IMG/VR virus record: IMGVR_UViG_3300028415_000329
Location: 1-21,454 of that record
Direction: 5' to 3' (one strand)
DNA length: 21,454 bases
Origin: a virus
Notes under the pieces: model-generated
What the model was told of the DNA's origin: nothing
The model's database searches: none
Seen by the model: the letters and a program-made list of their open reading frames with translations, nothing else
Shown: positions 19 through 18,000 of the stretch, piece after piece
Layout: each line of letters opens with the position of its first letter
How positions within the stretch are numbered: position 1 is the first letter of the stretch
Position numbers and translations under genes: made by a program

Positions 19-116
19 CCACCGGTGGGCAGCCCCGCCACTGGTGCTAGTGCTGGTGGCAGGCCTGCGGTCCAGCCTGCAGCTATCGGGAACGATTCCG
101 AGCAATTCGTTCCGAA

Positions 117-126: not shown

Positions 127-145
127 ATTGTGCCTCAGAAGTAGC

Positions 146-169
146 TGGACCACTACATGTAGTGGTCCA
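146..169. promoter_or_regulatory. 24-bp perfect palindrome, candidate operator
   Basis: The 24 bases are a perfect inverted repeat with no spacer. Each arm contains ACCACTACAT (149-158, with its reverse complement at 157-166) and the centre is ATGCAT-like (ACATGT). This is the most regular symmetric site in the window and is less G+C-rich than its surroundings. A dimeric repressor or activator site is the likeliest reading. A resolution, packaging or methylation site is also possible. No regulator gene lies in the window. Confidence 0.55.
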
Positions 170-201
170 ACCCCCCCTCCCCTGCCTCAACAGGCGCCCC
201 A

Positions 202-262
202 GCAGCCAGCAGCCGGCAGCCCGGCAGCCAGCACACTTGAGCGGCCGCCGCAGCCAGCACAC
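202..262. repeat. Three direct repeats of GCAGCCAGCA
   Basis: GCAGCCAGCA occurs at 202-211, 224-233 and 250-259. The last two copies extend to the identical 13-mer GCAGCCAGCACAC (224-236 and 250-262, 26 bp apart). Short direct repeats upstream of terminase genes are typical of packaging-protein binding sites, but the role here is inferred from position only. Confidence 0.45.
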
Positions 263-298
263 GCCTGCAGCACATCGACTTGCACCACGTCGCCGAAC

Positions 299-318
299 GT
301 GCTAGGCGCGCCCGGCAC
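299..318. repeat. Near-perfect 20-bp palindrome with GGCGCGCC core
   Basis: GTGC at 299-302 pairs with GCAC at 315-318 around a self-complementary core GGCGCGCC (305-312); only the two dinucleotide steps between them (303-304 and 313-314) break the symmetry. It could be a second protein-binding site. Palindromes of pure G+C are also common by chance in such DNA. Confidence 0.3.
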
Positions 319-365
319 TTGACCCCCGGTCCCAAGGCGGCGGGGCGGTGTTACTAATCATGCGT

Positions 366-441
366 CCCCGCATATGTCCGGGGTAACACTGGCTGCCGGC
401 GGGCTGCCGCCCCACTGCCGCCAGTGGCCCCCGCCGGGGGC
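366..441 (+). other. Cluster of three G+C-rich hairpins
   Basis: Three possible stems follow each other: CCCCG/CGGGG at 366-370 and 379-383, CCACTG/CAGTGG at 412-417 and 422-427 (4-nt loop), and CCCCC/GGGGG at 428-432 and 436-440 (3-nt loop). The last two abut. No U-run follows, so this is not a classical intrinsic terminator, but the stacked stems could stop transcription entering from the left or shape a packaging site. Confidence 0.35.
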
Positions 442-465
442 GGTGGTGTGCGCTACCTGCGCTTG

Positions 466-481
466 CTGCCGGTGCCGGCAG
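466..481 (+). other. Short hairpin CTGCCG-GTGC-CGGCAG
   Basis: A perfect 6-bp stem with a 4-nt loop. No U-run follows. Listed as part of the structured left region; function unknown. Confidence 0.3.
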
Positions 482-633
482 GGCTATCCCAGTGGGTGCC
501 TCAGCTAAGTTTCCGCTCCGCAGTCGTCTCCGCGAGTGGCTGCAACCGTCGGGGCCTGTCCGTCCGGTGCGCTGCCACCACCCACCCGATTCACAGACGG
601 TGGGCGTCCACATCTGTAGCGTGTGGATGCTGG

Positions 634-700
634 GTGTGCCTGTTGCGTTCCGCCTGCCATCACAGGCTTCGGCACACGCCCTGGACCTCCCTCGGAGGGA
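634..700 (+). other. Possible folded element: long-range stem plus local hairpin
   Basis: GTGTGCC at 634-640 can pair with GGCACAC at 671-677, and a local TCCCT/AGGGA hairpin with a 3-nt loop follows at 688-700. The layout recalls a structured RNA, but there is no covariation evidence and I could not fit it to a tRNA. Confidence 0.25.
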
Positions 701-759
701 TCACCAACCGCCATCACCGTCACGGTCACTCGAAACGCCGCTGTGGCGGGCGGACCCCG

Positions 760-781
760 GACGGCTTCTCGGTCTGCCGTC
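760..781 (+). other. Hairpin GACGGC/GCCGTC
   Basis: GACGGC (760-765) pairs with GCCGTC (776-781) across a 10-nt loop, about 110 bp before the terminase start. It would lie in the late-operon leader if transcription begins further left. No U-run follows, so I do not call it a terminator. Confidence 0.3.
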
Positions 782-879
782 GACCGTAGGTTGTGGTTGA
801 ACGCCCCCCCATCTTAGCACCGTTGAGGGTGTAGCCTCTGATGTGCATGACGGGGTGACGGCCCCTGTTGATTACCTCT

Positions 880-884
880 GGAGG
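880..884 (+). promoter_or_regulatory. Ribosome binding site that sets the terminase start
   Basis: GGAGG at 880-884 lies 4 bases before the GTG at 889. It falls inside the reading frame that extends back to a TTG at 868, which has no ribosome site of its own. This argues for GTG 889 as the start, although the spacing is at the short end of normal. Confidence 0.6.
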
Positions 885-888
885 CGCT

Positions 889-2820
889 GTGGCAGTTCGG
901 ACTTGCGCTTGCGGGTGCGGCGAAGCCTTGGCTAAAGGTGCCCGGTGGAACCGCATCTACCTGAACGATAAGCACCAGCGTCGGCAGACTGCTCGCAACT
1001 ACAACGCGCGGAAACGCACCAGTGAACGTGGCATCCGCAACGACCGGAAACGGGTGGGCACCGGCTCTGGGGACGCCCTCTCCTTCAAGGGCAAGGACGA
1101 GTCGCTGGATAATCGGGGCTCGTACCGGCGCGGCCCGAAGTACGAGGCGTTCTGCGAAACCGACTACCCGGAGGCGATCCTCAGCTCCGAGATGACCAAC
1201 GGGCAGGTCGCCTCCGAATACGGGGCGTCCCATGCCGACATCTCCCGGTGGATGGCCGCCTACCTGGAAGACCGGCAGACCGGCGCGGCGCTGAAAGACT
1301 GGACCCGCGACGAAGCGGTCGACGCCGCGCTGATGTCCTACCAGCCGTTCGTGGAGCACTTCCACCCGGAGGCCCTGATCCCCGACTTCCACCTGGAGTG
1401 GGAGCAGGAGATCGACGGGGTGGTGGGCAACGGCGGGCGGCTCGTCCTGTTGGCCCCTCAGAGGCACGGCAAGACCGAGTTCCTGATCCGCTACTGCCAG
1501 CGCCGTATCGCCGCCGACCCCGACATCTGCATCCTGTGGGTGTCGCGTGCCAAAGAGCTGGCCGAAGAGTCGGTCGGGATGCTGCGACAGTTGCTGGAGG
1601 ACGAGAAGTTCGGTGAAGCCGTACTCGGCCCCGGCCAGACGTTCAGGCCACCGGCCCGTTCCGGCAAAAGCTGGACCGACGAGAAGCTGACCGTCGGGCA
1701 GCGGACCCGCATCCGCAAGAGCCCGACGGTACGGGCACTCGGTATCGGCGGCACCACTTCCGGCCGTGACGCCGACCTCATCATCGTTGACGACCCGCAG
1801 GAACGTGAAGACTGCGTCAGCCCGACAACCCGCGAGAAGCAGTCGCGCTGGTTCATGACCACCCTGCTGGCCCGCAAGATGGAGAAGACCGGGATCGCGC
1901 TCATCACTTCGCGGCGCCACATCGACGACATCCCCGGCAAGCTCATCAAGGACCACGCCGAAGACTGGCGGACCATCATCTACCGGGCGCACAAGCTGGG
2001 CTGCCCGAAGCCGGAGGCCGACTCGGCCGACCACGCCGACTGCATCCTGTGGCCGGAGCTGCGGAGCCACAAGTTCCTGATGGGCCAGAAGCGCGCCGAC
2101 GTCGCCTTCTTCGAGTGCAACTATCAGAACAACCCGTCCGCCGACTCGCTGGTGCTCATCAAGGCCGAGCACCTGGAGCGGTGCAAAGACTTCTCCCGCA
2201 GCGTCGGGGCGATGCCGAAGAACGCGACCCGCTACATCGCAGGCATCGACCCTGCCGAAGCGAAGCCGGTCGCGGCGGTGCTGTGGGCGTGGGAGCCGTC
2301 AGGGACGATGCACATCGTCGACACGCTGGAGGCCGAACCGGGAGTGCGGGGTGGACGGCAGATCGTGACGACATGGTTCAAGAAGTACGCCTGCCGCGAG
2401 TTCGTGGTGGAAAAGAACATCGCTCAGTCGTGGTGGCAGGACAAGGAGCTTTCCGACTTCTGCGCCCGCAACGGCATCCCGAAGGTCCGCGAGCACTACA
2501 CCGACCGGACCAACAAGATGGACCCGAAGAACGGGGTGCCGTCGATGTACAACGACATGCGTACCGACCCTCCGAAGATCACCTTCCCGTACGGTGACCG
2601 TGACTCGCAGCAGCAGATGGACCGCCTGCTCCGGACCTTCCTGCTGTTCGACCCCGACCATGCAGGCGGCAAGCACGCCGACGATGACCTCCCTATGGCG
2701 GCATGGTTCGGGCACCACGTCATGCAGAAGTGGACGGTGCAGCGACAGGACGTCGCTGAGTACGACTATTCGCAGACACAATGGGTGTCTTCGACCACCC
2801 AGTACGCAGGAGTTGCCTGA
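889..2820 (+). CDS. terL: Terminase large subunit with N-terminal DNA-binding extension
   Basis: This is the motor and nuclease that cuts concatemeric phage DNA and pumps it through the portal (643 aa from GTG 889). The ATPase half shows a Walker A-like motif APQRHGKTE (Lys195), a Walker B LIIVDD (Asp301-Asp302) and a following LITSRRH coupling segment. The nuclease half has the RNase H-fold acidic residues in GIDPA (Asp454), VVEKN (Glu508) and HADDDLP (Asp598-600). The first 150 or so residues are unusual. They include a CACGC cluster (Cys6, 8, 10) with His29 resembling a degenerate zinc finger, a basic stretch, and a helix-turn-helix-like segment at about 103-125 (NGQVASEYGASHADISRW). No separate small terminase is in view, so this extension may recognise the packaging site. 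The stop overlaps the portal start (TGATG). The terminase identity is firm; the role of the extension is inferred. Confidence 0.95.
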   Translation: MAVRTCACGCGEALAKGARWNRIYLNDKHQRRQTARNYNARKRTSERGIRNDRKRVGTGSGDALSFKGKDESLDNRGSYRRGPKYEAFCETDYPEAILSSEMTNGQVASEYGASHADISRWMAAYLEDRQTGAALKDWTRDEAVDAALMSYQPFVEHFHPEALIPDFHLEWEQEIDGVVGNGGRLVLLAPQRHGKTEFLIRYCQRRIAADPDICILWVSRAKELAEESVGMLRQLLEDEKFGEAVLGPGQTFRPPARSGKSWTDEKLTVGQRTRIRKSPTVRALGIGGTTSGRDADLIIVDDPQEREDCVSPTTREKQSRWFMTTLLARKMEKTGIALITSRRHIDDIPGKLIKDHAEDWRTIIYRAHKLGCPKPEADSADHADCILWPELRSHKFLMGQKRADVAFFECNYQNNPSADSLVLIKAEHLERCKDFSRSVGAMPKNATRYIAGIDPAEAKPVAAVLWAWEPSGTMHIVDTLEAEPGVRGGRQIVTTWFKKYACREFVVEKNIAQSWWQDKELSDFCARNGIPKVREHYTDRTNKMDPKNGVPSMYNDMRTDPPKITFPYGDRDSQQQMDRLLRTFLLFDPDHAGGKHADDDLPMAAWFGHHVMQKWTVQRQDVAEYDYSQTQWVSSTTQYAGVA

Positions 2821-4607
2821 TGGGCTACTACGACGAGAAGCCGACGCCGAAGACCTTCGAGCAGGTCCGCGACCGCGTCGAAACGTTGCGCCAGATCACC
2901 GAGCCGTACATGGCGGACCGCCACCGCATCCGTTCGGTGGCCAACGGTGGGCGTCAGGCCATCAACGCACTGCTGAAGGACTACCAGGACAAGAACGCCG
3001 ACACGCTGCCTGCCGCCAACATGATCGCCGACGGCATCGAAGCGTTCTCCCACATGATCGCCCCGGTTCCGGCACTTCGCATCGACCCGCCGTCGCATCT
3101 GGACACCGACCCGGCGAAGAAGCGCGCGCAGAACCGTACCCGGATCGTCGAAAACTACGACCGGCTGGCACGCCTGCCGCTCCAGTTGGAGCGGATGTCG
3201 CAGTGGCTCCCCGGCTACGGGTTTTCGACGTGGTACGTGGTGGAAGGCCGGGACAAGAACAACGGCCGCTACCCACGCCTGATGCAGCACGACCCCTACG
3301 CGACGTGGGCGGGAGAGTGGGGCGTCGACTATCACCCTTCCGACGTGGCGCTCCAGTTCTGGACGTCCAAGGAAGAGTTCGCCCGCGCCTTCCCTGACGC
3401 TGCCGGCAAGGTGTCGTGGGGCGACCTCTACGGCAACACCCGCCAGCCCGGCTGGGACGGCGTCAACGAGGTGGTCGAGTTCACCCGCTACATCGACGGC
3501 GCGGCCGTGTACCTCTACTCGCCGCTGACCGACAACTTCCTGATGAAGCCGGTCGAGCATCCGCTGAACCGTGCCCCCATCGCCCTGCCTCGGCGCACCA
3601 CCTTCGACCAGTTGAAGGGACAGTTCTCCGAAGTGTTCGGGCTGGCTGCGTCGATCATCAAGTTCGCGCTGCTCTCCCAGATCAGCATGGAAGAGGCGGT
3701 GTTCGCCCCGGTTGTGGTCAACGGCCGGATGGAGGCGCCGTTCCGCAAGGGCCGCAACGCCGTCAACTTCGTTGAAGGCGGCGGGGCGCAGTACCTTCAG
3801 CAGAACCAGCCGTATCAGATGGCACAGGAGGTCGACCGCCTTGAACGCTACCTGCGGGCGTCTTCGGGCTACTCGAAGCAGGCTGACGGGGAGACGCCCG
3901 CCAACATGGCGGCGACAGGTGCCGGGCTGGAACAGTTGCAGTCGGGGACCAACCGGAAGGTGGAGCGCTACCACCGGGTCATCGCCGACGGGCTGGTCGA
4001 CATCGACTCGGTCCGCCTGGAGTGGGACGAGGTGGCATACGGCGGGGTGAAGAAGACGCTGGACGACACGACGAAGGGCGTCACGCACGCCAACACCTAC
4101 GACCCGTCAGATATCGGGGGCCACTACGGCACCCGTCGCGTCTACGGGCTGATGGCAGGATGGGACGAGCCGACGAAGCTGGTCGGCGGGCTGCAACTGG
4201 TCGGTTCCGGTGCCATCGACCTGACGACGCTGCGGGAGAACCTGTCGGGCCTCGACAACATCCCGCGCATCGAGCAGCGGCTCGGCAAGGAGACGGCACG
4301 CCGGGCGTTGGAGGCGTTCCTGATGCAGGGCGCCGAGCAGGGCGACCCGAAGGCGGTCCAGACGCTGCTGGAGTTGAACCGCACAGGCGACTGGGACAAG
4401 GCGTTCGAGGACTTCTACAAGCAGGAGGAGGAGGCCGCTCCGGCTGGGCCTGCGCTTCCCGAGCAGCCCCCCGGCCTGGAGCAGGCGATGGCGATGATGG
4501 GCGGCCCGGCAGGGGCCGGGGACACGTCGGGCCAGACGCTGTCCCGGCTGTCAGGTTCGGGCCGGGTAGAAGGCGGCGCGCAGGTCGTCGCCCCGATGGG
4601 AGGCTAG
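2820..4607 (+). CDS. Portal protein
   Basis: Predicted dodecameric ring at one capsid vertex through which DNA is packaged and ejected (595 aa). The start is ATG 2820, overlapping the terminase stop and preceded by AGGAG with a 7-nt spacer; the frame is open 39 bp further back but without a ribosome site. The call rests on its place directly after terL, a length usual for portals, and its content: an N-terminal helical part, a beta-rich centre (WYVVEGRDKNNGRYPRL, then FTRYIDGAAVYLY), and a long helical stretch (about 270-420) with the FGLAASIIKFALLSQISMEE segment expected for the stem and crown side. The C-terminal 60 residues are Pro/Gly/Ala-rich and probably disordered. Fold comparison would confirm it; a different head protein in this position is unlikely. 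Confidence 0.85.
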   Translation: MGYYDEKPTPKTFEQVRDRVETLRQITEPYMADRHRIRSVANGGRQAINALLKDYQDKNADTLPAANMIADGIEAFSHMIAPVPALRIDPPSHLDTDPAKKRAQNRTRIVENYDRLARLPLQLERMSQWLPGYGFSTWYVVEGRDKNNGRYPRLMQHDPYATWAGEWGVDYHPSDVALQFWTSKEEFARAFPDAAGKVSWGDLYGNTRQPGWDGVNEVVEFTRYIDGAAVYLYSPLTDNFLMKPVEHPLNRAPIALPRRTTFDQLKGQFSEVFGLAASIIKFALLSQISMEEAVFAPVVVNGRMEAPFRKGRNAVNFVEGGGAQYLQQNQPYQMAQEVDRLERYLRASSGYSKQADGETPANMAATGAGLEQLQSGTNRKVERYHRVIADGLVDIDSVRLEWDEVAYGGVKKTLDDTTKGVTHANTYDPSDIGGHYGTRRVYGLMAGWDEPTKLVGGLQLVGSGAIDLTTLRENLSGLDNIPRIEQRLGKETARRALEAFLMQGAEQGDPKAVQTLLELNRTGDWDKAFEDFYKQEEEAAPAGPALPEQPPGLEQAMAMMGGPAGAGDTSGQTLSRLSGSGRVEGGAQVVAPMGG

Positions 4608-4610
4608 AAG

Positions 4611-5042
4611 ATGGCACGTCGCAGACAGCATGGCGGCTACCGCCGACCGGCAAGCCCCGCAGCGGCGTCCGGTCCGGGCGCGCTTTCGCAGCGCACCGAC
4701 GGGGGGCCTGGTGAGCTTGAGTACTCGGGCCTCGCCTACGGCGAGAACAAGGCGGTCAACAGTCAGGCAGGCGCGGTGCCGCTTGCCGGGCAGCGTGGCG
4801 CCGACGGCGGAGGAGGCCCGCCGCCGGCAGGGGGCGGTGGAGGGCGTGTGCCGCAGGGCGGAGCGTTCGGGCCGACCACCCGCCCGGACGAGGCGATGAC
4901 CGCAGGCGTCAACTCTGGACCGGGGCCGGGGCAGCGCGGCCCGGTACTGGAAGAAGACCCGTACCTGATGATCCGTGCCCTGATGCAGGTTGCCCCGTCC
5001 CCCCAGTTGGCACAGATGTTGGCGAGGTTGTCCCGTGGCTGA
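4611..5042 (+). CDS. Small Pro/Gly-rich virion-associated protein of unknown function
   Basis: A 143-aa protein starting at ATG 4611, 3 bp after the portal stop, with GGGAGG 7 nt upstream. It opens with a basic stretch (MARRRQHGGYRR), then a motif SGPGALSQRTDGGPG (20-34), a long low-complexity Gly/Pro/Ala middle (about 60-110), and a short helical C-terminus (EEDPYLMIRALMQV). I recall the SGPGALSxRTDGGP-type motif from small proteins next to portals in actinobacterial and environmental phages, but cannot verify it here. No enzymatic motif is visible. A minor head or portal-associated protein is plausible. The last 8 bp overlap the next gene, so the two are translated together. Confidence 0.75.
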   Translation: MARRRQHGGYRRPASPAAASGPGALSQRTDGGPGELEYSGLAYGENKAVNSQAGAVPLAGQRGADGGGGPPPAGGGGGRVPQGGAFGPTTRPDEAMTAGVNSGPGPGQRGPVLEEDPYLMIRALMQVAPSPQLAQMLARLSRG

Positions 5043-8000
5043 AAACAACAGGTGGATCAGCGACGAGATGGAGATGCAGGCCATCGAGGAGGCGGACCGC
5101 CGCCGCCGTTCGGTCGCGTCGATGGCGCGGAACATCACGCCGCAGCAGGTACAGCAGGCGCAGGGGCTGATTGAGCGCAACCCGAACCTGTCTGCCGGGC
5201 TGTTGCAGGCTCTCCTGCAAGGCGACGTCCCCGACGCGCAGGCGGACGCGCTGGCGCAACAGGACGAAGGCGGATGGATGGGCTCGATCATGGACGTCGC
5301 CGGCGACGTCATCGAGTCGGTCACCGACGGCGGCGAATGGGCGATGACACGCGCCTACGAGTACGGGATCAAACCTGCGGTACGTGGCGTCGTGCTGGCG
5401 TCCGAGACGTTGGCGCAGGAGGTTGTTCAGCGTCCTCTGACGGCCGGGCTCGCCACCATCCAGGGCGAGGCCGACTCGTTCGGGCAGGCATACGACGACT
5501 ACGGGGACTCAGCGGGCGTCAACCTGCTGCAAGGCGACCTTGCAACCGTTGACGCGCAGGGCAACCCTATCGAGGACGGGGTGCTCGGAAAGGGGCTGTT
5601 CCTCGGAGGCAGCGCGCAGGCGGAGACGGACAGCGAACGGAAGCTCCAGATCAGAGGGCAGCGTGCCGACGTCGGACAGGCGCTCGCCAACGGGCTGGTC
5701 GGCTCGTTCTACTCCCCCGGCGACCGTGCCTACGACGTCACCGCAGGCATCTCGGGTTTCGCTGTCGACGTGTTCGGCGATCCGCTGGCGTGGGCGACAG
5801 GCGGCGCTACGAAGGCGATCAAGGCGTCGAGGTCGCTGTCGGTGTCCGGGGCGAACGAGATACTTGCCGCAGCGAAGGTTGCAGGCAAGGAGGATGAGCT
5901 GCTCGGGGCGGCGAGGGCCGCCTCCAGAACGGTCGACGCTGGAACGCTCCGCCCCAGAGGCAGCGTTTCGACGTTCGCTGGCCGGGCGGACGACTTTACG
6001 GACACCCTGTTCCGCGAAGTCGACGTCAACGACGCTAGGGCATACGTCCCCGGCGGCATGGGTGATGACGCTTCCGCCCGTGAGCTTTACTTCTCCTCGT
6101 CCCGCAACCTTGCGAGGGGGCAGGGCAAGAGCCAGGGCGTCGTTCTGGAGTTCGACGCTTCGGCCGTCCAAGGGCAGGCTCGCGCCAACGTCTCGAAGCC
6201 CGCCTGGGAGGCGGCCTGGGATGCGGGGGAGGCCGAGTTCACGGTGCTCCAGGCCCCCTCTCGGATGCGCGACGCGGTCCGTTCCGTCACCGTCAAGAGC
6301 GACGCTGCCGGAGCCAAGGGCGCTAGTTCTTCGTTGAGCCAGACACTCGACGAGCTTGTCGATGCAGGTTGGGAGCGGGTCGACGTCGAGGATGGCGTCA
6401 AGTACGTCCGCCCAGGGCGGGTGGCTGACGACGCGGCGTTCAAGGATGCCGGGCTCATCCAGGGTTCACGCCGCAACACGCTCCTGATGGAGAGAGGCCG
6501 CGACTTCTTCAGCAACGACCGGATGCTTCAGCGTCTCGCCGACTCGGACGAGTACGACATCATGCAGTCGTGGGCGCGCTCGCCCGCCAACCGCATCGAC
6601 CTGAAGACCATCGTCGCACTCGGGGACGCGAAAGATCCGGCGTCGGTCATCGAAGTGCTGCTCAATGCCGTCGGCCAGGGCGACGTCGCTCAGAGCGGCT
6701 TCTACTCCGGCATGGGCAACTTCGTCAAGCGAAGCCTGAACGAGTCAACCTCGAAGTTCGCAGGACCGTTCCGCTACTTCACCGCCGAAGGCAAGCTGGC
6801 GGGCCTCGCGCCGACCGGGTCGGTGTCTGCGGACACTCTCGCGTCGTCGGCTGGCAAGCTCGACTCACTGCTTCGTCAGGCGAACATCCCTCGCGAGTTT
6901 CGTGCCAGCATCTTCGGACGCATGGCACGGGCGGAAGACGGCGCGTTCGATGAGCTGTTCGACATCGTCACCGACGCCATCGACGAAGTCGCCTTGAAGG
7001 TCGACGGTGGCGCCGACACGTCGCTGAACGCCATCGCCAAGTCTTACCGCGAGGAGTTGGGGCAGCTACGCGAATACGGGATCGAGTCATGGGGCAACGC
7101 CATCGACGTGCCCTACGCGAAGCGGAAGATGGTGCAGAACTTCGACGGCACGACAGTTGAGATGGTCGTCCCGACGCCGCAGGCCCTAGTCGAACTGTCG
7201 GACCTCTCCCTGCACCTGCCCGACATTACGAGTATCCGTCGTGCCGCAACAGAGACGGCGCTGCTTCGCAGCGTCTACACCTCGAAAGGCTGGGACTTCA
7301 CTGCATCGACTGCCAAGTCGATAACCCACAACGTGTTCAAGCCGCTCGCGATCCTTCGTCCCGCCTACGTGGTCCGTATCGGGGCGGAAGAGCAGGCCCG
7401 CCTGGCGGTGGAAGGCTACGACTCCATGTGGGATCACCCCCTCCGGTTCATCATGGCGAACCTCCGCAACCGCGACGAGTTGAGCGACCTGATGGGCAGG
7501 GAGCTACGGGACGTCGCCGAGGAGGTCGGCGTGATAACGCGGGACGCTCACGGGTTCATGGCTGACTCCGCTGGCTCGAAGGGGCGTATGTTCACGAAGG
7601 TCTACCGGGTCGAGGGTGAGGATCTGTCGACGGCGTACGTCACGGGGTGGCGTGGCGAGCTTGGGCAGATCGCCGCTAGCGACGACCTGCGCCAGATGGC
7701 GTTCCTCCGTGGCAACCTTGACGAGTTCAAGACGTGGGCGCAAGGCGAAGGGCTACCGCACATCCGACGCATGGCGCGAGTCAACAAGGACGAGAACAAG
7801 CTGCTGGAGTTCGGGGACGGCTTCGATGATTGGGCGAGAGGGCAACGCACCCGTGTCGAGGCGAAGACCAACTGGGACGAAGACCTGATCGACCGGATCG
7901 TCAACAAGGACATCCCCTACCCCGGCCCGCACAAGAAGGCGAAGAACGCCGAACTCGGGTTCGCCAACTTCCTGCGCGCCAAGGCACGAGACGGGGTCGC

Positions 8001-10119
8001 TCCGGCAGCGGTCAAGTCGGAGATCAAGACTCCCGGCAGGACGAAGCATCTGGACAACGTGCTCGACACGCTGTTCAACAACCTCACAGGCAAGCCGACC
8101 TCGTACCTGGCCCGTTTCCCTGCGTTCCGCCAGTCGATGCTGCGACGCACCGGGGAGCTGTTCGACACGCTCGCCACCGACGAGCTGCGCGAAGAGGCGT
8201 TCGCACTGGCCGTCAACAACTTGGGGGCCAACACCGGCAAGGTGCTGCGCGACACCCCACAGTTGCGGGCGCTCCGCGAAGCGTTCGACGCATCGAAAGG
8301 CAAGGTCGGCGGCAAGATCAAGTCCATCGAGGACTTGAACCGGGCCGTCATCCAGAAGTCCTCGGAGGACGTCAAAGACCTGCTGTTCGATGTAACGGCA
8401 CGCGGCTCCGCCCAAGAGGCGATGGAGGTCGTCGTCCCGTTCCTCGACGCATGGAAGGAAGTGTCGAGGACGTGGGCGCGGCTAGGCAAGGAGAACCCGG
8501 CGTTCTTCATCCGGGCACAGGCTGGCTACCGGGAGCTGGAAGACAACGGGTTCTTCCACGTCAACGAGCATGGCAAAGAAGTGTTCAACATGCCGGGCGG
8601 GCAATACCTGTCGTCGTTCGTATCGCGACTCAACGAGGACGACGCTTCGTTTACCGAGGGGGGCATCGGGGCTGGCATTGGCGCCGTGGCGGGAGGGGCT
8701 ATCGCTTCGCGACTCGGGCCGCTCGGGACCAAGGCGGGAGCTGCGGCCGGGGGGGCGGCAGGGGGCGCTATCGGTGGTCTGTTCGGCGGCACGACACAGG
8801 CGGCCGCGGGCGCGGCAGCCGACGTAGCGACCGGCGACACGCCAGCCCAGGCCCCCCAGCTCGAAGGGCGGGTGGAAGGCATCAACCTGGTCGCCCAAGG
8901 CATCGGCCCCGGCTTCGGCCCGGTCGTCCAGTGGGGCGCAGGCGTGATGCCGAGCGCCCCTGAACTTGAAGGCTTCCGCAACTTCCTCGCACCGTTCGGC
9001 ACCGGCCTTTCCGAGCCCGACGACGTGCTGTCGCCGGGGACGATCCCGGAGACGCTGCTGCCCGCGTGGATGAGGAAGCTGTTCAACGCAGTCACCGAAG
9101 GCGACATTGACGAGCGCCAGTGGAACTCGACGGTCGGCGACGCAGTGAAGGCCCTGGTCGCGTCCGGAGAGATTGCACCCAACGACCCGGACCTGGTCGA
9201 GAAGTCGGAACGCTACGGACGGTGGCTGCTGCTGGCCCGCTCGTTCGGGCAGGCCACCGGGCCTACCGGGCCGTCGGCGACGTTGGAGACAGAGCTGCCG
9301 GACCGCAACGTCAAGCATGAGGACTGGAACCCGGAGATCGACCCGTCCGGCGAGATGTTCGGCATCGGCGTGCTCGCCTCCGACTACTACCGTCTGGCGC
9401 AGACCTACGGCCCCGAAGACGCGGCGGCACGGTTCTACGACATGTACGGCGCAGAACCGTTCTTCGTCGCGCAGTCGAAGACGAAATCGCTCGCCGAACT
9501 TCCGGTGTCAACCGAAGGCGGCCGGTGGATGCGGACCAACGAAGGGGTCGTCGACGACTTCCCGGTGGTGGCAGGCTTCTTCGCCCCGACCGACGAGGAC
9601 GCGGAGCTTGACTTCTCCGTCTACTCGGGGCAACTTGCCCGCGGTCAGCGGGAGTCGTTGACTCCCGCTCAGCAGACTGCCGCAGCCCAGCAGGTCCGCG
9701 CCCGTTCTATCTACAACACCGTGAAGGACCGTCTCGAAGGGCTCCCCACCGCACAGCGCGACCGTGCGTTGGCGTTGACGGAGGCGCGGCTGGAAGAGGT
9801 CCACCCCGGCTGGCGGGCGCCCGTGCTCGGCGTCGGCGGCACCCTACGTGCCGACGACAAGATCAGAGAGTTGCAGCGTGCTGTGGAAGACCCACGGCTC
9901 GCCGACAATCCGTTGACCCCGACCTTGTCCACCTACCTGCGGATCAGGGGCATGGCGTTGGCGGAGGCGGAGGCTCGCGGCTACAAGACGCTGGAGTCCG
10001 ATAAGGTCGCGGACATCCGCGAACGGCTGAGCGCAGCCGGTACGGCAATCAGTCAGAGCGACCCGGTGTTCATGGGCGTATGGTCAGGGCTGCTTTCGCG
10101 GGAGGTCGAAGACCAATGA
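5035..10119 (+). CDS. Giant internal virion (ejection) protein
   Basis: At 1694 aa this is the largest protein in the window. The start is GTG 5035 with GAGG 7 nt upstream, overlapping the previous gene by 8 bp; the frame upstream is open but lacks a ribosome site. The sequence is mostly helical. An N-terminal region with FGDPLAWATGG-type helical hairpins precedes a segment (about 323-420) laid out like an ADP-ribosyltransferase: LFREV (Arg327), YFSSS (Ser354-356) and EAEF (Glu399, Glu401). Residues 1209-1262 form a long Gly/Ala segment with GxxxG spacing, as in membrane-inserting glycine zippers. The C-terminal part carries WMRTNEG and PAQQTAAAQQ-like helices. Size, position before two wall hydrolases, and lack of tape-measure repeats suggest a T7 gp16-like ejected protein. 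The enzyme activity is a hypothesis only. Confidence 0.7.
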   Translation: MAENNRWISDEMEMQAIEEADRRRRSVASMARNITPQQVQQAQGLIERNPNLSAGLLQALLQGDVPDAQADALAQQDEGGWMGSIMDVAGDVIESVTDGGEWAMTRAYEYGIKPAVRGVVLASETLAQEVVQRPLTAGLATIQGEADSFGQAYDDYGDSAGVNLLQGDLATVDAQGNPIEDGVLGKGLFLGGSAQAETDSERKLQIRGQRADVGQALANGLVGSFYSPGDRAYDVTAGISGFAVDVFGDPLAWATGGATKAIKASRSLSVSGANEILAAAKVAGKEDELLGAARAASRTVDAGTLRPRGSVSTFAGRADDFTDTLFREVDVNDARAYVPGGMGDDASARELYFSSSRNLARGQGKSQGVVLEFDASAVQGQARANVSKPAWEAAWDAGEAEFTVLQAPSRMRDAVRSVTVKSDAAGAKGASSSLSQTLDELVDAGWERVDVEDGVKYVRPGRVADDAAFKDAGLIQGSRRNTLLMERGRDFFSNDRMLQRLADSDEYDIMQSWARSPANRIDLKTIVALGDAKDPASVIEVLLNAVGQGDVAQSGFYSGMGNFVKRSLNESTSKFAGPFRYFTAEGKLAGLAPTGSVSADTLASSAGKLDSLLRQANIPREFRASIFGRMARAEDGAFDELFDIVTDAIDEVALKVDGGADTSLNAIAKSYREELGQLREYGIESWGNAIDVPYAKRKMVQNFDGTTVEMVVPTPQALVELSDLSLHLPDITSIRRAATETALLRSVYTSKGWDFTASTAKSITHNVFKPLAILRPAYVVRIGAEEQARLAVEGYDSMWDHPLRFIMANLRNRDELSDLMGRELRDVAEEVGVITRDAHGFMADSAGSKGRMFTKVYRVEGEDLSTAYVTGWRGELGQIAASDDLRQMAFLRGNLDEFKTWAQGEGLPHIRRMARVNKDENKLLEFGDGFDDWARGQRTRVEAKTNWDEDLIDRIVNKDIPYPGPHKKAKNAELGFANFLRAKARDGVAPAAVKSEIKTPGRTKHLDNVLDTLFNNLTGKPTSYLARFPAFRQSMLRRTGELFDTLATDELREEAFALAVNNLGANTGKVLRDTPQLRALREAFDASKGKVGGKIKSIEDLNRAVIQKSSEDVKDLLFDVTARGSAQEAMEVVVPFLDAWKEVSRTWARLGKENPAFFIRAQAGYRELEDNGFFHVNEHGKEVFNMPGGQYLSSFVSRLNEDDASFTEGGIGAGIGAVAGGAIASRLGPLGTKAGAAAGGAAGGAIGGLFGGTTQAAAGAAADVATGDTPAQAPQLEGRVEGINLVAQGIGPGFGPVVQWGAGVMPSAPELEGFRNFLAPFGTGLSEPDDVLSPGTIPETLLPAWMRKLFNAVTEGDIDERQWNSTVGDAVKALVASGEIAPNDPDLVEKSERYGRWLLLARSFGQATGPTGPSATLETELPDRNVKHEDWNPEIDPSGEMFGIGVLASDYYRLAQTYGPEDAAARFYDMYGAEPFFVAQSKTKSLAELPVSTEGGRWMRTNEGVVDDFPVVAGFFAPTDEDAELDFSVYSGQLARGQRESLTPAQQTAAAQQVRARSIYNTVKDRLEGLPTAQRDRALALTEARLEEVHPGWRAPVLGVGGTLRADDKIRELQRAVEDPRLADNPLTPTLSTYLRIRGMALAEAEARGYKTLESDKVADIRERLSAAGTAISQSDPVFMGVWSGLLSREVEDQ
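8659..8820 (+). other. Glycine-zipper membrane segment within the ejection protein
   Basis: This stretch encodes residues 1209-1262, almost only Gly, Ala, Ile, Leu and Val, with repeated GxxxG and GGxxGG spacing broken by a short SRLGPLGTK turn. It can be read as two packed membrane helices. Such segments let ejected phage proteins form channels in the inner membrane. Low-complexity linker is the alternative. Confidence 0.55.
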
Positions 10120-10967
10120 CAGAGCAGGAACTTGCGGTACTTGAGGCATCGTTTGCAGGCGGGGGCAGCCTGCCCGCGGGGCAGGATGCCCCCATCGGTG
10201 GCTACGCCCCGCCACAGGCCCCTGGCGCGTCTTCGATGGCGCCACAGGACCCGAACAGGTTGGTGCCCGCCACCGAACGCCGGAGCCCCGGCTACGGAGC
10301 GCCCGTCCCGCCATCTAACGGAACGGTCTACTACGAGGGCGCCGACTACGGGGTCCTTCGCCGTATGTCCACGGAAGAACTCGGCCGCTTCCAGGACTCT
10401 CTCGTCGCCAACGGCCTGGCCCGCGAGATCATCCCCGGACGCATCGACGACAGCACCGTCGGTGGGATGCAGACGCTGATGGCTCTCGGCAACCGGCAGT
10501 CGACGTCGTGGAGCGAAGTCCTCGAAGGGATCATCCGTATCGGCGGCGTACCGGGCAGCGGCACAGACGGTGACGAGTTCGACCCGAAGCCGTATCTCGC
10601 ACCCGACTACGCCTCGCTGGCGCAGACGGTCAAGTCGACGTTCCGTCAGCGGCTCGGCCGCGAACCGGACCAGGCGGAGATGGCCGAACTGGTCGGCGAA
10701 CTGCAAGGCTGGAGCAAGGGCGCCTACGACGCCGAAGTCCAGTACGGGCAGGCACAGTTCGACGACGACGACGGCATCCCTGGAGTGGAGGAGCCGATGC
10801 AGGAGCTGTCCAACGTCGACCCGGTGTCGCGGTTCCAGGAGCTGTTCGACGAGCGCTACCAGGGCGAGATCGACTTCCGCGAGGACCAGGCTGCCGCACC
10901 GAGTCGGCGGGCGTCGGTCCAGGGCGCCGCAGACACCATCGCACGGATGAACCGGACGAGTTACTGA
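10116..10967 (+). CDS. Internal virion protein with possible peptidoglycan-binding-like segment
   Basis: A 283-aa protein whose ATG 10116 overlaps the preceding stop (ATGA), with GGAGG 10 nt upstream. The first 70 residues are Gly/Pro-rich. Residues about 85-135 (STEELGRFQDSLVANGL, then PGRIDDSTVGGMQTLMAL) follow the spacing of PG_binding_1 domains: a helix with a conserved Q-L pair, a Gly-Asp turn, then a T/A-V helix. Residues about 172-200 contain FRQRLGREPDQAEMAEL, a short helical repeat pattern that recurs in phage structural proteins. The C-terminus is acidic then basic. It sits between the giant ejection protein and the transglycosylase, so a role in targeting or anchoring wall enzymes is reasonable but not shown. 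Confidence 0.7.
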   Translation: MTEQELAVLEASFAGGGSLPAGQDAPIGGYAPPQAPGASSMAPQDPNRLVPATERRSPGYGAPVPPSNGTVYYEGADYGVLRRMSTEELGRFQDSLVANGLAREIIPGRIDDSTVGGMQTLMALGNRQSTSWSEVLEGIIRIGGVPGSGTDGDEFDPKPYLAPDYASLAQTVKSTFRQRLGREPDQAEMAELVGELQGWSKGAYDAEVQYGQAQFDDDDGIPGVEEPMQELSNVDPVSRFQELFDERYQGEIDFREDQAAAPSRRASVQGAADTIARMNRTSY

Positions 10968-11647
10968 TGGCTGAAGAACAACTCGGGTCGTTCATGGAGG
11001 CCATCGCAGAGCAGGAGTCGGGCGGCAACTACGGTGCCGTCGGGCCGTACACCGGGTCGCGCTACGGCCGTGCCCGCGGCAAGTATCAGATCATGGAGAC
11101 GATCTGGCCCGGCTGGGCGAAAGAGGCCGGGATGGCCGGCGCGTCGTGGAACGACCCGGCCGCACAGGAACGGGTCGCCCGCTACAAGATGTCGCAGTAC
11201 TACAAGCGCTACGGCTCGTGGGACCTTGTCGCGGTCGCATGGTTCGCCGGGCCGGGGCGAGCCAACACGGCGCAGCGCGAAGGTATCGGGGCGATAGGCA
11301 ACATCTCGGACGTGCTCGGGACCAGTGTCGCCAAGTACGTGGCAACGATGAACGAAGGGCTGGGTCGAGGCGCCGCACCGCTCCCCGGCACAGGAGCGGG
11401 CGGCGGCGCTCCCGGTACCGGCGGCATCCCAGGCATCGTCGAGAAGCTGGGTCGCCGCGGGGAGCCGCAGGCCGCTTCGGGGGCGATGGCGAGGATCATG
11501 GAGTCGATATCCAGGCGAGCATCCGAAGGCGGCGGCAAGATACTCAAGGTGGACGCGCTGTCTGGCGACCTGTTCGGCGACGACTCGGAACTTTCCGACC
11601 CGCTCGCCCAGTACCGCCCCCAAGAGCGCGACATCGGAGGCGCCTGA
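10967..11647 (+). CDS. Virion-associated lytic transglycosylase (SLT-like)
   Basis: A 226-aa protein predicted to cleave the glycan strand of peptidoglycan during DNA entry. Residues 9-125 carry the soluble lytic transglycosylase layout: catalytic Glu17 in EQESGGNYG, the GKYQIM motif, and AVAWFAGPGRAN near the end of the domain. Many such domains are embedded in larger tail proteins; here it is a separate small gene. After the domain comes a linker PLPGTGAGGGAPGTGG (138-153) shared with the next two genes, then a helix module MARIMESISRRASEG...VDAL (174-198) also found in the M23 protein. There is no signal peptide, as expected for an enzyme carried in the virion rather than used for lysis. 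Start ATG 10967 overlaps the previous stop (TGATG). Confidence 0.88.
   Translation: MAEEQLGSFMEAIAEQESGGNYGAVGPYTGSRYGRARGKYQIMETIWPGWAKEAGMAGASWNDPAAQERVARYKMSQYYKRYGSWDLVAVAWFAGPGRANTAQREGIGAIGNISDVLGTSVAKYVATMNEGLGRGAAPLPGTGAGGGAPGTGGIPGIVEKLGRRGEPQAASGAMARIMESISRRASEGGGKILKVDALSGDLFGDDSELSDPLAQYRPQERDIGGA
11384..11425 (+). repeat. 42-nt exact repeat, copy 1 (LPGTG linker)
   Basis: These 42 bases in the transglycosylase gene recur without a mismatch at 12328-12369, 944 bp downstream in the M23 gene. They encode most of the PGTGAGGGAPGTGG linker in the same reading frame. Exact identity at wobble positions points to recent duplication or gene conversion rather than convergence of glycine-rich sequence. 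Confidence 0.9.
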
Positions 11648-12390
11648 TGTACCTGCCGGTGGCAGGCATGAGCCCGAGCCAGTTGGCCGACACGTTCGGC
11701 GCCGACAGGGACGGCGGTGCGCGTAGACACAAGGGCATCGACATCTTTGCTCCCGAAAGCACGTCGGTCGTGGCGGTGCGCGGCGGCACCGTCGTCAAAG
11801 CTGGCACGGCAGGCAAAGGCGGCACCCGTGCGTGGGTCCGCGACGACGAAGGCTTCTACCACTACTACGCCCACATGAACCGGCTGAGCGTCAGCGCCGG
11901 CCAGCGCGTCGAGTCCGGGCAGGAGGTCGGCGGGGTGGGACGCACAGGCAACGCGCAGGGCACCCCACCGCACCTGCACTATTCGGTCAACTTCGGCGGC
12001 GGCACTTCCGAGGCGAACTCGCTGAACCCGTACAACTTCCTGATGAGCAAGCGTTCGGACCAGTTGCAGGTCGCAGCCGACGCGGAGCTTCCCGGCCAGC
12101 CACCAGCGCAACGGCGCAGCCCGAGCGACGTTATGGCAGGGATCATGCAGGCCGTGTCCCGTGCGGCGTCGGGCGACGGTGAAGGACGTATCCTCGACGT
12201 CAACGCCCTGTTCGGGCAGACTTCGCCTGCTGTCGCTACCGAGCCTCGCAGCGACGAGGAGCGCATCGCTGCACGGACCAACGATTCGCTCACCTACACC
12301 GGCACTGGCGGCTCTGACGCCGGGCTTCCCGGCACAGGAGCGGGCGGCGGCGCTCCCGGTACCGGCGGCCTCAACGATAGGAACCTCTGA
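11647..12390 (+). CDS. Virion-associated M23 (LytM-type) peptidoglycan endopeptidase
   Basis: A 247-aa zinc metallopeptidase predicted to cut peptide cross-links of the host wall. The domain covers about 10-130 and holds all expected ligands: His28 and Asp32 in HKGIDIFAP, His76 in YYAHM, and the HLH pair His109-His111. No signal peptide is present. The C-terminal half is not catalytic. It carries a helix module VMAGIMQAVSRAAS...VNALFG (162-190) matching the transglycosylase, and a terminal LPGTGAGGGAPGTGG linker (227-241). Start ATG 11647 overlaps the previous stop and has GGAGG 6 nt upstream, so the two wall enzymes are translationally coupled and probably made in similar amounts. Together they would attack both glycan and peptide bonds at the entry site. 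Confidence 0.92.
   Translation: MYLPVAGMSPSQLADTFGADRDGGARRHKGIDIFAPESTSVVAVRGGTVVKAGTAGKGGTRAWVRDDEGFYHYYAHMNRLSVSAGQRVESGQEVGGVGRTGNAQGTPPHLHYSVNFGGGTSEANSLNPYNFLMSKRSDQLQVAADAELPGQPPAQRRSPSDVMAGIMQAVSRAASGDGEGRILDVNALFGQTSPAVATEPRSDEERIAARTNDSLTYTGTGGSDAGLPGTGAGGGAPGTGGLNDRNL
12328..12369 (+). repeat. 42-nt exact repeat, copy 2 (LPGTG linker)
   Basis: Identical to 11384-11425. Here it encodes the last residues of the M23 protein, only about 340 bp before related repeats in the next gene. Confidence 0.9.
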
Positions 12391-14276
12391 TGGCACTCCC
12401 AGGACCAGGGGACCGCTCCACACCTGGGGCGCCGTCCGGCGCTAGCGAAGCTGTTCTTGACCCTCGCAGGCTGTGGCGCGAGTTCAAGGCCGCGGTCGAC
12501 GCGGGCCTCGCGCAGGAGATGGAGGGCTGGCGGGACGACAGGGACGAACTCGCCAACTTCTACATCTGGTACCGCAACCTCGGTCGCGTAGAGAACCACC
12601 CGTACCGCGGCCAAAGTCCCCCTTCCGAAAGCGACATGCGGGCCGCCCGCAGCGCAAGCGAGCCACCCAACCAGACCACGACCCCTGTCGACCGCTCCGA
12701 CGCTGGGCTTCCCGGCACGGGGCCGGGTGGCGGCGCTCCCGGCACCGGAGGCGTCACCGACCGCTCCGACGCTGGGCTCCCCGGCACAGGGCCGGGTGGC
12801 GGCGCTCCCGGCACCGGAGGGGTTTCTGGCGGCGGTGCGACCAGCGGCGGCGGTGCGACCAGCGGCGGCGGTGCGACCAGCGGCGGCGGGGCGGTCCCGG
12901 TCGACCCTTCCCTTCCTGAGCCTGGCACGCTCAAAGGTGTTCCCGGTGGCGGCGACGTGTGGAAGGTCGGAAACGACTACTGGCTGGCCTACACGATCCC
13001 TGGCACCAACACTCCGCTCGTCTGGAAGGTCAAGAACGAGAAGGACGCCCTGAGCATCTTCGGCACCGCAACTCCCGACGCCGACCGGACGTTGAGCCAG
13101 GCCCAGTTCAAGAAGCTGTCCCCGTGGCAGCTCGGCGGACTGACCGACGAACTAGGGGCCTTCGCAGACGAGACGCACCCGTGGGAGCAGTTCATCGCCG
13201 ACTTCGACAAGGCGGCGGAACTGCGTCCGTGGCTCAAGGACGTCGACTATATGGCGGTCGTCGCAACCGCCTACCTGGAGGGCCGTGAGCCAACCACCGA
13301 CGAACTGGCGACGACCGACTGGTGGCGGACGCACACCGAAGACGAGCGTCAGTGGATGGAGTCGTCCGCAACGGCCGGTGCCGCCGAGATCGACCGGCGC
13401 CGCGAAGACTCGAAGCGTGCCGTTGCCGAAGCGCTACGGCAGGCCGGCATGGCCAACCCGACAGATCAAGTGATCGACCTGATCGCAGAGCAGCGACTCA
13501 CCGGGAAATGGTCGGACGACTACACCGCACAGCAGGTCCGCAAGCTGGTGGACCCGTTCGCGGCTGGCGAGCTTGACAAGGGCCTGCTGACAGCTATGCG
13601 CGGCGTGGGGACCGCCGGAGACGCCCGCGCAGTGTCAGAAGGCATCGCTGCGGTGCGGGCACGGGTGCGGGCACTGTTCACCAACCGCAACACCACCATC
13701 GCTTCCGAAGACGGGGGCGAGTTCGAGACCATCGACCGCATCTCCCGGCAGATCATGTCGGGGCAGCGCAGCTTCGAGGAGGTCCGTGGCTCCATCGACT
13801 GGCGCGCCAGGCAGGAGGACGGGGGGCGGCCGGGAGGGCTCGACGTTACCCGCGAAGGTGAAGACACTGTGCGCGAGCTTGCAGCGAAATGGCTGGGCCC
13901 ATCCCTCGGGGAGATGTCGGACCGGCAGGTGTCCAGGTGGGCGGGGCTCATCCGCAACGACCCGGACGCTCAGCAGGAGTTCGAGGCCACGATGCGCCAG
14001 CAGCGGCTCGCGATGCTGCCCGGCTACACCAATCAGAACCTCACCTACGAGGACATCGTCGAGCCGGTGCGCCGTCTCGCCACGAAAACGTGGGGGCGAC
14101 CTGTCGACGACGAGGGGCTGCTGGTCGACCTTGCCAACACCGGGGACTACACGGAGATGGCGAAGCGGCTCCGCAAGGAGGGGCTAGCGAAAGGCGTCGC
14201 CAAGCCGGTACAGGATGCGCTGGGCGGACTGATGGGCACCAGCATGGGCGACCGCGTACAGAGGAGCACGGTATGA
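12390..14276 (+). CDS. Internal virion protein with LPGTG and GGGATS repeats
   Basis: A 628-aa protein starting at ATG 12390, overlapping the M23 stop (TGATG). Residues 1-95 form a small domain with WREFKAAVDAGL and FYIWYRNLGR. Residues 101-146 are two tandem 23-aa units containing LPGTGPGGGAPGTGG, followed by GGGATS units (147-168). The remainder is a folded, mainly helical part: DVWKVGNDYWLAYTIPG (189-205), a TDWWRTHTEDERQW segment, and WLGPSLGEMSDRQVSRWAGL then IRNDPDA...LPGYTNQNLTYEDI (501-560). I recall the WLGP / RNDPDA / NLTYEDI pattern from large structural proteins of environmental phages, but could not check it. No enzymatic motif is seen. Its place in the block suggests an ejection or tail-core protein. 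Confidence 0.72.
   Translation: MALPGPGDRSTPGAPSGASEAVLDPRRLWREFKAAVDAGLAQEMEGWRDDRDELANFYIWYRNLGRVENHPYRGQSPPSESDMRAARSASEPPNQTTTPVDRSDAGLPGTGPGGGAPGTGGVTDRSDAGLPGTGPGGGAPGTGGVSGGGATSGGGATSGGGATSGGGAVPVDPSLPEPGTLKGVPGGGDVWKVGNDYWLAYTIPGTNTPLVWKVKNEKDALSIFGTATPDADRTLSQAQFKKLSPWQLGGLTDELGAFADETHPWEQFIADFDKAAELRPWLKDVDYMAVVATAYLEGREPTTDELATTDWWRTHTEDERQWMESSATAGAAEIDRRREDSKRAVAEALRQAGMANPTDQVIDLIAEQRLTGKWSDDYTAQQVRKLVDPFAAGELDKGLLTAMRGVGTAGDARAVSEGIAAVRARVRALFTNRNTTIASEDGGEFETIDRISRQIMSGQRSFEEVRGSIDWRARQEDGGRPGGLDVTREGEDTVRELAAKWLGPSLGEMSDRQVSRWAGLIRNDPDAQQEFEATMRQQRLAMLPGYTNQNLTYEDIVEPVRRLATKTWGRPVDDEGLLVDLANTGDYTEMAKRLRKEGLAKGVAKPVQDALGGLMGTSMGDRVQRSTV
12690..12827 (+). repeat. Two tandem 69-bp units encoding LPGTG linkers
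   Basis: Units 12690-12758 and 12759-12827 differ at only a few bases and each encodes 23 residues beginning DRSDAGLPGTG. The same protein motif ends the M23 protein and follows the transglycosylase domain, so this is a duplicated form of a linker shared by three neighbours. Confidence 0.85.
12828..12893 (+). repeat. 18-bp tandem repeat (GGGATS), 3.7 copies
   Basis: GGCGGCGGTGCGACCAGC is repeated exactly at 12828-12845, 12846-12863 and 12864-12881, then a partial copy to 12893. It directly abuts the 69-bp units and encodes a flexible Gly/Ala/Thr/Ser linker. Copy number is likely to vary between related phages by slippage. Confidence 0.9.
14261..14266 (+). promoter_or_regulatory. Strong ribosome binding site in front of a 12-codon ORF
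   Basis: GAGGAG with a 6-nt spacer to ATG 14273. It is the best ribosome site at this junction, yet it serves a 12-codon frame rather than the 523-aa gene at 14311, which has only GGGGAA upstream. Confidence 0.6.
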
Positions 14277-16788: not shown

Positions 16789-18000
16789 ATGCCAACCGTT
16801 GCCGCACTCGGTACATCTTTCAATCTGCCGAACTATCACGGCAGAGTCCACCCGCTCACCCCGTCCGACACGCCGTTCACGACCGCCCTGATGGGGCAGT
16901 CGGGCGGCGGCGAAGTCGACCCTGCCCGCACGTTCGAGTGGCAGACCACCGACCTGCGCGACGCCGCACAGAACACTGTGGTCGACGGTGATCGCGTAGG
17001 GACCGGCGAGCACCGCAGCCGCTCCAACGTGTTCAACGTCCTCCAGACCCACCGCGAAGACGTCGACGTGGCCTACGAGCGGCTGTCTGCAACCGGCCAG
17101 TTCGACGGTCGCAACATCGCTGGCGGCAACCCGATCGTCAACGAGGAAGCCTTCCAGATCACCCAGATGTGGAAGCAGATCAAGCGGGACATCGAGTTCT
17201 CGCTCATCAACGGCACCTACGTTCTGCCCGGCACCAACGGTACGGCGGCGCAGACCCGTGGCATCCTGGAAGCCATCACGACCAACGCCGTCGACTCGTC
17301 CAGCCAGGTCGCCACCCTGGCGACCTCCGCGAACTCCGACGACACGTTCGACACGTCGTCCGCTCACGGACTTTCGGTCGGCGACGACTTCTACATCACC
17401 GGGCTAACCGGCGGTTCGGGGATCGCAGCCAACACCCGCTACTACGTCACCACCGTCCCGACAACCACCTCCTTCACGGCTTCGGCCACGAAGGGCGGCG
17501 CGTCGCTCGACTTCGGTTCTGACGTCTCGGCAGGCAACATCTTCTCCTACGCCGAACCGGACGGTGAGTCGCTTGGCGACCTCATGCAGTCCGCATGGGA
17601 CAACGGCGGGTTGCAGGAGTCCGAGATGGGCCTGCTCATCGTCAACTCCGGCCTGAAGCGCTGGCTGACCAAGGTGTTCATCACCGACAAGAACCTGGAG
17701 ACTCGCAGCCGCGACGTCGGCGGAGCGAACGTTCAGGTCATCGACACGGACTTCGGTCCGCTCGGCATCATGCTGAACCGCTACATCCCGCAGGGCACGC
17801 TTGCGGCGGTGTCGCTGGACCAGTGCAAGCTGCACTTCCGCAACGTCCCAGGCAAGGGCGTCATGTTCGCTGAGCCGACCTCCAAGGCCGGTGCCTCCAA
17901 CGCCACGCAGCTCTACACGAGCGCCGGCCTGGAGTACGGCAACGAGGCGGCTCACGCCAAGAGCACCGGGTTCACTACCAACGCTCCGGCGGCTGTCTGA
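16789..18000 (+). CDS. Major capsid protein (DUF5309 / SU10-type, HK97 fold) with inserted beta domain
   Basis: The shell subunit, 403 aa, with AGAGGAG upstream of ATG 16789. The N-terminal part matches the SU10-type capsid pattern: LTPSDTPF (23-30), FEWQTTDL (49-56), a VDGDRV segment, and IKRDIEFSLINGTY (131-144). The conserved C-terminal part includes LMQSAWDNGG, LLIVNSGLKRWLT and VQVIDTDFGPLGIMLNRYIP. Between them residues about 170-252 are a Thr/Ser/Gly-rich beta segment (DTSSAHGLSVGDDFYITGL, then ANTRYYVTT) of the kind found as surface beta domains in phage fibres and decoration proteins. This is probably an insertion exposed on the capsid surface. Directly after the gene lies a strong hairpin. 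Family assignment is from memory of the motifs. Confidence 0.9.
   Translation: MPTVAALGTSFNLPNYHGRVHPLTPSDTPFTTALMGQSGGGEVDPARTFEWQTTDLRDAAQNTVVDGDRVGTGEHRSRSNVFNVLQTHREDVDVAYERLSATGQFDGRNIAGGNPIVNEEAFQITQMWKQIKRDIEFSLINGTYVLPGTNGTAAQTRGILEAITTNAVDSSSQVATLATSANSDDTFDTSSAHGLSVGDDFYITGLTGGSGIAANTRYYVTTVPTTTSFTASATKGGASLDFGSDVSAGNIFSYAEPDGESLGDLMQSAWDNGGLQESEMGLLIVNSGLKRWLTKVFITDKNLETRSRDVGGANVQVIDTDFGPLGIMLNRYIPQGTLAAVSLDQCKLHFRNVPGKGVMFAEPTSKAGASNATQLYTSAGLEYGNEAAHAKSTGFTTNAPAAV

What the first reader, a model, noticed from the sequence alone, without database searches (positions are those of the whole stretch)
6001..6300. ADP-ribosyltransferase-like R-S-E layout inside the giant ejection protein
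Seen: residues 323-420 run LFREV (Arg327), an acidic loop, YFSSSRNLARG (Ser354-356), a strand GVVLEFDAS, then EAEFTVL (Glu399, Glu401) and a closing strand. Known: R-S-E ADP-ribosyltransferases have an Arg on the first strand, an S-T-S-like motif before a helix, and E-x-E on a late strand, and T4 packages such an enzyme (Alt) and injects it. Inferred: this protein may deliver an ADP-ribosyltransferase into the host with the genome. If so, it would be an injected host-takeover enzyme fused to an entry protein.
Basis: partly seen in the sequence, partly recalled or inferred. Interest (0 to 1): 0.7.

Follow-up and report, generated by a model that had tools for sequence, protein, structure and literature searches.

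The report
Swappable ADP-ribosyltransferase-like phage protein module
A giant phage protein, probably one that leaves the particle with the DNA, carries a small extra domain that is predicted to fold like enzymes that tag host molecules with ADP-ribose, and near-identical phages lack it, so it looks like a plug-in tool for taking over the bacterial cell.

Summary
Arg327, Ser354-356 and Glu399/Glu401 lie where stated, in one 1694-aa frame (5035-10116). AlphaFold2 models of the domain, built on the window sequence and on a 30-34% identical relative, retrieve almost only ADP-ribosyltransferase (ART) superfamily structures (Tpt1/KptA, Scabin, Rhs TreX/TreTu, cholera/pertussis A chains, CARDS, DarT1). 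Z reaches 6.1 and 7.4; unrelated folds appear only at 3.6. Arg sits on the first strand, the serines end the second strand, and Glu401 starts a late strand, which is the R-S-E layout.
(1) The domain is a discrete inserted module: a phage about 95% identical on both sides has 22 residues in place of its 182, and two more distant relatives also lack it. (2) It belongs to an unnamed family without a Pfam model. One relative is encoded just upstream of a terminase gene. The other lies in a variable slot of the giant protein of Thalassomonas phage BA3, where related phages carry other sequence, in one case with an HEVGH metallopeptidase-like motif.
Best reading: a cassette ART effector carried by an ejection-position virion protein. 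Packaging, delivery, activity and target are inferred, not shown.

The parts
5035..10119 (+). giant 1694-aa protein between portal and wall-hydrolase genes; host of the module; probable ejection (pilot) protein
   Evidence: open frame; homologues in L002 (63%), L003 (95%), L099 (30-41%); no Pfam family
5890..6435 (+). inserted module, residues 286-467; about 66 nt (22 aa) in its place in L003, nearly identical DNA on both sides
   Evidence: also absent in L002 and L099
6007..6021 (+). LFREV, predicted first strand with Arg327 (candidate NAD+-binding Arg)
   Evidence: Arg invariant in 3 of 3 family members
6085..6120 (+). LYFSSSRNLARG, end of second strand, candidate S-T-S motif (Ser354-356) and following helix
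   Evidence: STS in L008, TDD in BA3
6136..6156 (+). GVVLEFD, third strand; with GQGK before it the most conserved stretch of the family
6229..6249 (+). EAEFTVL, candidate E-x-E (Glu399, Glu401) at the start of a late strand
   Evidence: EGEL in L008; register uncertain in BA3
6340..6420 (+). C-terminal helix plus hairpin (LDELVDAGWERVDVEDGVKYVRP) shared by the family members
868..2820 (+). terminase large subunit
   Evidence: phrog_38, E 9e-51
2817..4607 (+). portal protein
   Evidence: phrog_104, E 7.5e-10
10967..11647 (+). SLT lytic transglycosylase
   Evidence: PF01464, E 2.6e-8
11638..12390 (+). M23 peptidase
   Evidence: PF01551, E 1.9e-25
16789..18000 (+). major capsid protein
   Evidence: phrog_1328, E 9e-61

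Best explanation
Residues about 286-467 of the giant protein are an independently folding, horizontally acquired ADP-ribosyltransferase-like module of R-S-E type, inserted in a permissive slot of a virion protein that probably leaves the particle with the DNA. Steps: (a) the module has an ART-like fold with Arg327 on strand 1, Ser354-356 at the end of strand 2 and Glu399-x-Glu401 at a late strand [predicted]; (b) it is an optional cassette: the same giant protein exists without it in close relatives [shown by sequence]; (c) the giant protein is packaged and ejected with the genome, aided by the neighbouring wall hydrolases [inferred from gene order]; (d) once inside, the module uses NAD+ to ADP-ribosylate a host protein or nucleic acid early in infection, in the manner of T4 Alt [inferred]. 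The target is unknown.
For: Fold: window model pLDDT 68.5, pTM 0.67 with only 3 sequences. In VIA-align 2 all 50 rows shown are ART superfamily members, Z 4.8-6.1. A second model, built on the homologue L010 (pTM 0.71), gives Tpt1/KptA at Z 7.4, rmsd 2.6 over 83 residues, then pertussis, CARDS, Scabin, diphtheria, DarT1 and Rhs ART toxins, with the first clearly unrelated fold at Z 3.6. The offsets at the start of the aligned ranges put model residue 38 (= Arg327) on residue 7 of cholera toxin A1, 9 of pertussis S1 and 10 of CARDS; those are the known catalytic arginines (own knowledge). Both models place the S-x-S at the end of strand 2 and the second Glu of E-x-E at the first residue of a late strand. 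Family: L008, 34% identical, has LFRETN, STSRNLALGQGKNKGV and GEGEL and lies directly upstream of a terminase gene; BA3 gp2 is a proven homologue of L008 (E 9e-10). Module nature: clean replacement; absent in three relatives. Context. In the BA3 relatives the same kind of slot holds unrelated sequence.
Against: Foldseek alone gives no significant PDB match (best E 0.13, though the top seven are ARTs), and Z stays below 8. No Pfam, NCBIfam or PDB sequence match. Profile comparison with T4 ModA/ModB is not significant. BA3 has TDD instead of S-x-S and an uncertain E-x-E, so at least that member may be inactive or different. The best structural match, Tpt1/KptA, belongs to another ART clade (H-H-h). 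The two models share one shallow alignment, so they are not fully independent. No coordinates were available to measure whether Arg, Ser and Glu form one pocket. Virion localisation and ejection are not tested.
Confidence: 0.6

Rival explanations
1. The module has the ART fold but is no longer an enzyme: a degenerate ART used as a binding or decoy domain in the ejection protein.
For: BA3 lacks S-x-S and perhaps E-x-E; the most conserved stretch of the family is LAxGQGKxxGVxxE[FL]D rather than the catalytic motifs.
Against: The window and L008 both keep R, S-x-S and E-x-E although they are only 30-34% identical.
Confidence: 0.17
2. An ART-superfamily enzyme with another chemistry, for example RNA/DNA end ADP-ribosylation or 2'-phosphate transfer (Tpt1/KptA-like) or NAD+ degradation, rather than modification of a host target in the manner of Alt.
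For: Tpt1/KptA chains are the best structural matches of both models.
Against: The residues at the three catalytic positions are R, S, E and not those of the H-H-h clade; the Tpt1 alignments mostly cover only about 80 residues.
Confidence: 0.1
3. A domain of another fold; the ART match comes from a shallow three-sequence alignment.
For: Mean pLDDT 68-69; no significant Foldseek match in the PDB.
Against: Models of two differing sequences return ARTs almost exclusively, and random matches would be mixed.
Confidence: 0.1
4. The insertion is an assembly chimera.
For: It is found in one contig only; relatives lack it.
Against: Both junctions are in frame inside a 5 kb open frame, third-position GC of the module (0.80) is close to that of the gene (0.83), and homologues occur in similar genomic settings.
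Confidence: 0.03

Closest known systems
T4 Alt (Alt/VIP2 family, R-S-E ART packaged in the head and injected)
   Same: R-S-E placement of residues; proposed delivery with the genome (PMC5512222)
   Different: No significant profile similarity to the T4 ART paralogues ModA/ModB (Alt itself not compared); here it is a module inside a 1694-aa protein between portal and wall-hydrolase genes, not a stand-alone head protein
ARTs of phage polyvalent proteins (Tox-ART-HYD2 clade, Pfam ART-PolyVal)
   Same: ART domain inside a giant protein thought to be injected; modular architecture (PMC5512222)
   Different: Those have H-Y-D residues; this has R-S-E. [quoted passage not shown] No Pfam match here
Thalassomonas phage BA3 gp2 (ABV74287), N-terminal variable slot
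   Same: Homologous module (LYRET ... LALGQGKNQGV..EFD ... TYTR) inside a giant protein near a DNA-ejection gene of a P22-like podovirus
   Different: S-x-S replaced by TDD and E-x-E uncertain; the carrier is a polyvalent methyltransferase protein (phrog_15406), unrelated to the window's carrier protein
Phage ARTs fused to MuF or encoded beside terminase and portal genes
   Same: Position in the packaging/virion block (PMC9503650)
   Different: Different carrier protein and an undescribed, divergent ART-like family

Membership tests
ADP-ribosyltransferase superfamily (fold) | split beta-sheet ART fold | tested here: inconclusive
   Two AF2 models retrieve almost only ARTs (Z up to 6.1 and 7.4), but Z is below 8 and Foldseek E is at best 0.13. 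Strongly suggestive.
R-S-E clade ART | Arg on strand 1 | tested here: met
   Arg327 on strand 36-40 of the model; Arg in 3 of 3 members
R-S-E clade ART | S-T-S-like motif at the end of strand 2 before a helix | tested here: met
   SSS in the window, STS in L008; not in BA3 (TDD)
R-S-E clade ART | E-x-E on a late strand | tested here: met
   EAE in the window, EGE in L008, second Glu opens the strand; register unclear in BA3
R-S-E clade ART | Arg, Ser and Glu in one NAD+ pocket | not testable with these tools
Alt/VIP2 family | sequence or profile similarity to Alt/ModA/ModB | tested here: inconclusive
   hhalign to ModA/ModB E 0.57, though the S-x-S strands are in register; shallow profiles. 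Alt itself was not compared
ART-PolyVal (Pfam) | match to the Pfam model and H-Y-D residues | tested here: not met
   No Pfam match at E 5; residues are R-S-E
Ejected virion protein | present in the particle and ejected with DNA | not testable with these tools
   Gene order only
Catalytic ADP-ribosyltransferase | transfers ADP-ribose from NAD+ | not testable with these tools
   needs biochemistry

The most novel reading that the evidence does not exclude
A previously undescribed, divergent family of R-S-E-type ADP-ribosyltransferases that phages plug in and out of a cassette slot in giant ejected (polyvalent-like) proteins, so that otherwise near-identical phages differ in the injected effector they carry.
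Probability: 0.5. Interest if true: 0.62.

Novelty: new variant of a known kind. Interest (0 to 1): 0.5.

Why it matters
Injected ARTs are a known first move of some phages, but the R-S-E kind had been reported as absent from genuine polyvalent proteins. Here an R-S-E-like module is present in one phage and cleanly absent from a sister about 95% identical on either side, giving a natural with/without pair. This suggests that giant ejection proteins have effector slots in which host-takeover enzymes can be exchanged. Looking for such slots by comparing near-identical phages would be a simple way to find unknown injected effectors.

Tried and rejected
Pfam, NCBIfam, PHROG and PDB sequence searches of the domain: nothing significant. 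Near-identity and protein searches in phages and plasmids: only a weak BA3 lead (E 2), later confirmed through L008. Genome-contig scans with the module and with the capsid protein: no relatives, so no host could be named. A profile scan of 45 records, nearly all of them encoding related capsids, found no further module; the tool warns that such an empty answer shows little. T4 ModA/ModB profile comparison: not significant. Foldseek against viral models: only BA3 itself significant. The idea that the region is an ordinary, conserved part of the ejection protein was rejected because three relatives lack it. Foreign base composition as a sign of acquisition: not seen (GC 0.68 against 0.66, GC3 0.80 against 0.83, within the range of the gene).

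Full report
What is there. The window is a 21,454-base IMG/VR virus record. Genes on the plus strand run terminase (868-2820), portal (2817-4607), a small gene, the giant gene (5035-10119), a 295-aa gene, an SLT transglycosylase, an M23 peptidase, two long genes of unknown function, a scaffold-like gene, the major capsid protein and tail genes. Capsid relatives in the phage collection are largely actinophages. A giant gene between portal and capsid, next to two wall hydrolases, is the usual place of ejection proteins in short-tailed phages; this is inference from gene order, since the protein itself matches no named family.

The observation. All residues named in the finding are at the stated positions when the frame is counted from the GTG at 5035. 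The loose R / S-x-S / E-x-E pattern occurs once in the protein and in 0.6% of shuffles, a figure to be read with care since the pattern was chosen afterwards.

The region is a module. Related phage contigs were found. L003 carries the first 438 residues of the protein (cut off by the contig end), about 95% identical; L002 carries a full-length version, 63%; L099 a more distant one, 30-41%. None has residues 286-467. In L003 the DNA is nearly identical up to about window position 5889 and again from 6437, and between them about 66 bases stand in place of 546, all in frame. Absence in the two outgroups makes gain in the window's lineage the simpler story. Base composition of the module is not unusual for the gene, so either the donor was of similar composition or it has adapted.

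The family. A weak match to Thalassomonas phage BA3 led through a two-sequence profile to L008, a 34% identical domain at the C-terminus of a protein encoded immediately upstream of a terminase gene. L008 and BA3 are clear homologues (E 9e-10). The three share L[FY]RE, LAxGQGKxxGVxxE[FL]D, a late strand-turn-strand and a C-terminal stretch ending in YxRP/YTR. L008 has the canonical STS and EGE; BA3 has TDD and an uncertain E-x-E. BA3's copy is in a 2631-aa giant protein close to a DNA-ejection gene of a P22-like podovirus. Aligned with four related phages, that giant protein is well conserved before and after, but the stretch with the module is replaced by other sequence; one relative (L102) has HHEVGHW there, a zinc-metallopeptidase-like motif. 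So the same module sits in variable slots of two unrelated giant proteins.

Fold. For the second model Tpt1/KptA leads (Z 7.4, 2.6 A over 83 residues), followed by other ARTs, with the cohesin rows at Z 3.6 the first clearly unrelated fold (the CC0527 rows at 4.6-4.8 are a DUF952 protein, which from own knowledge is grouped with the ART clan). Foldseek alone is weak (best E 0.13) but its top seven are ARTs. In both models Arg is on strand 1, the serines close strand 2 before a short helix, and the second Glu of E-x-E opens a late strand. For the window model the range offsets place Arg327 on cholera A1 residue 7, pertussis S1 residue 9 and CARDS residue 10, the known catalytic arginines (own knowledge). 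Given the tool's own warning about middling Z, the fold is called strongly suggested, not proven.

Mechanism. Most likely the giant protein enters the cell with the DNA and the module ADP-ribosylates a host molecule early in infection, as T4 Alt does. Shown: module boundaries, family, motif conservation, predicted fold. Inferred: packaging, ejection, catalysis, target.

Place among known things. ARTs in giant injected proteins and ARTs beside packaging genes are known (PMC5512222, PMC9503650). The polyvalent ARTs described there are of the H-Y-D kind, and the R-S-E family of Alt was stated not to occur in genuine polyvalent proteins. The present module is R-S-E-like, has no Pfam model, and sits in giant proteins; it is therefore a new variant of a known kind. 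Membership in the Alt/VIP2 family is not claimed.

Limits. Only three family members were found, the models rest on one shallow alignment, no coordinates could be examined, no host could be named, and a library of cellular predicted structures was not on hand.

Noticed in passing
window 11362-11427, 12306-12371, 12689-12754, 12758-12823: A 66-nt repeat encoding a DAGLPGTGxGGGAPGTGG-type linker occurs four times, across three consecutive genes (SLT, M23 and the 628-aa gene): possible recombination points between virion proteins.
   Followed up: partly
window 14325-14493 and 14529-14697: A 169-nt direct repeat (84% identical) encodes two tandem copies of an RQRIVDIYxNxGLEPPPNI unit at the start of the 528-aa protein.
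   Followed up: partly
window 8659-8817: A glycine-zipper-like stretch (GGIGAGIGAVAGGAIASR...) in the giant protein, mostly missing in L002; it might be membrane-inserting.
   Followed up: no
L102 (MW824394), variable slot of the giant protein (alignment columns about 600-850): The slot that holds the ART-like module in BA3 holds sequence with an HEVGH zinc-metallopeptidase-like motif in Vibrio phage 41E34.2 and other sequence in L103/L104.
   Followed up: partly
window 1-867: No convincing plus-strand gene before the terminase; it may be a noncoding or minus-strand region, or the record's ragged end.
   Followed up: no
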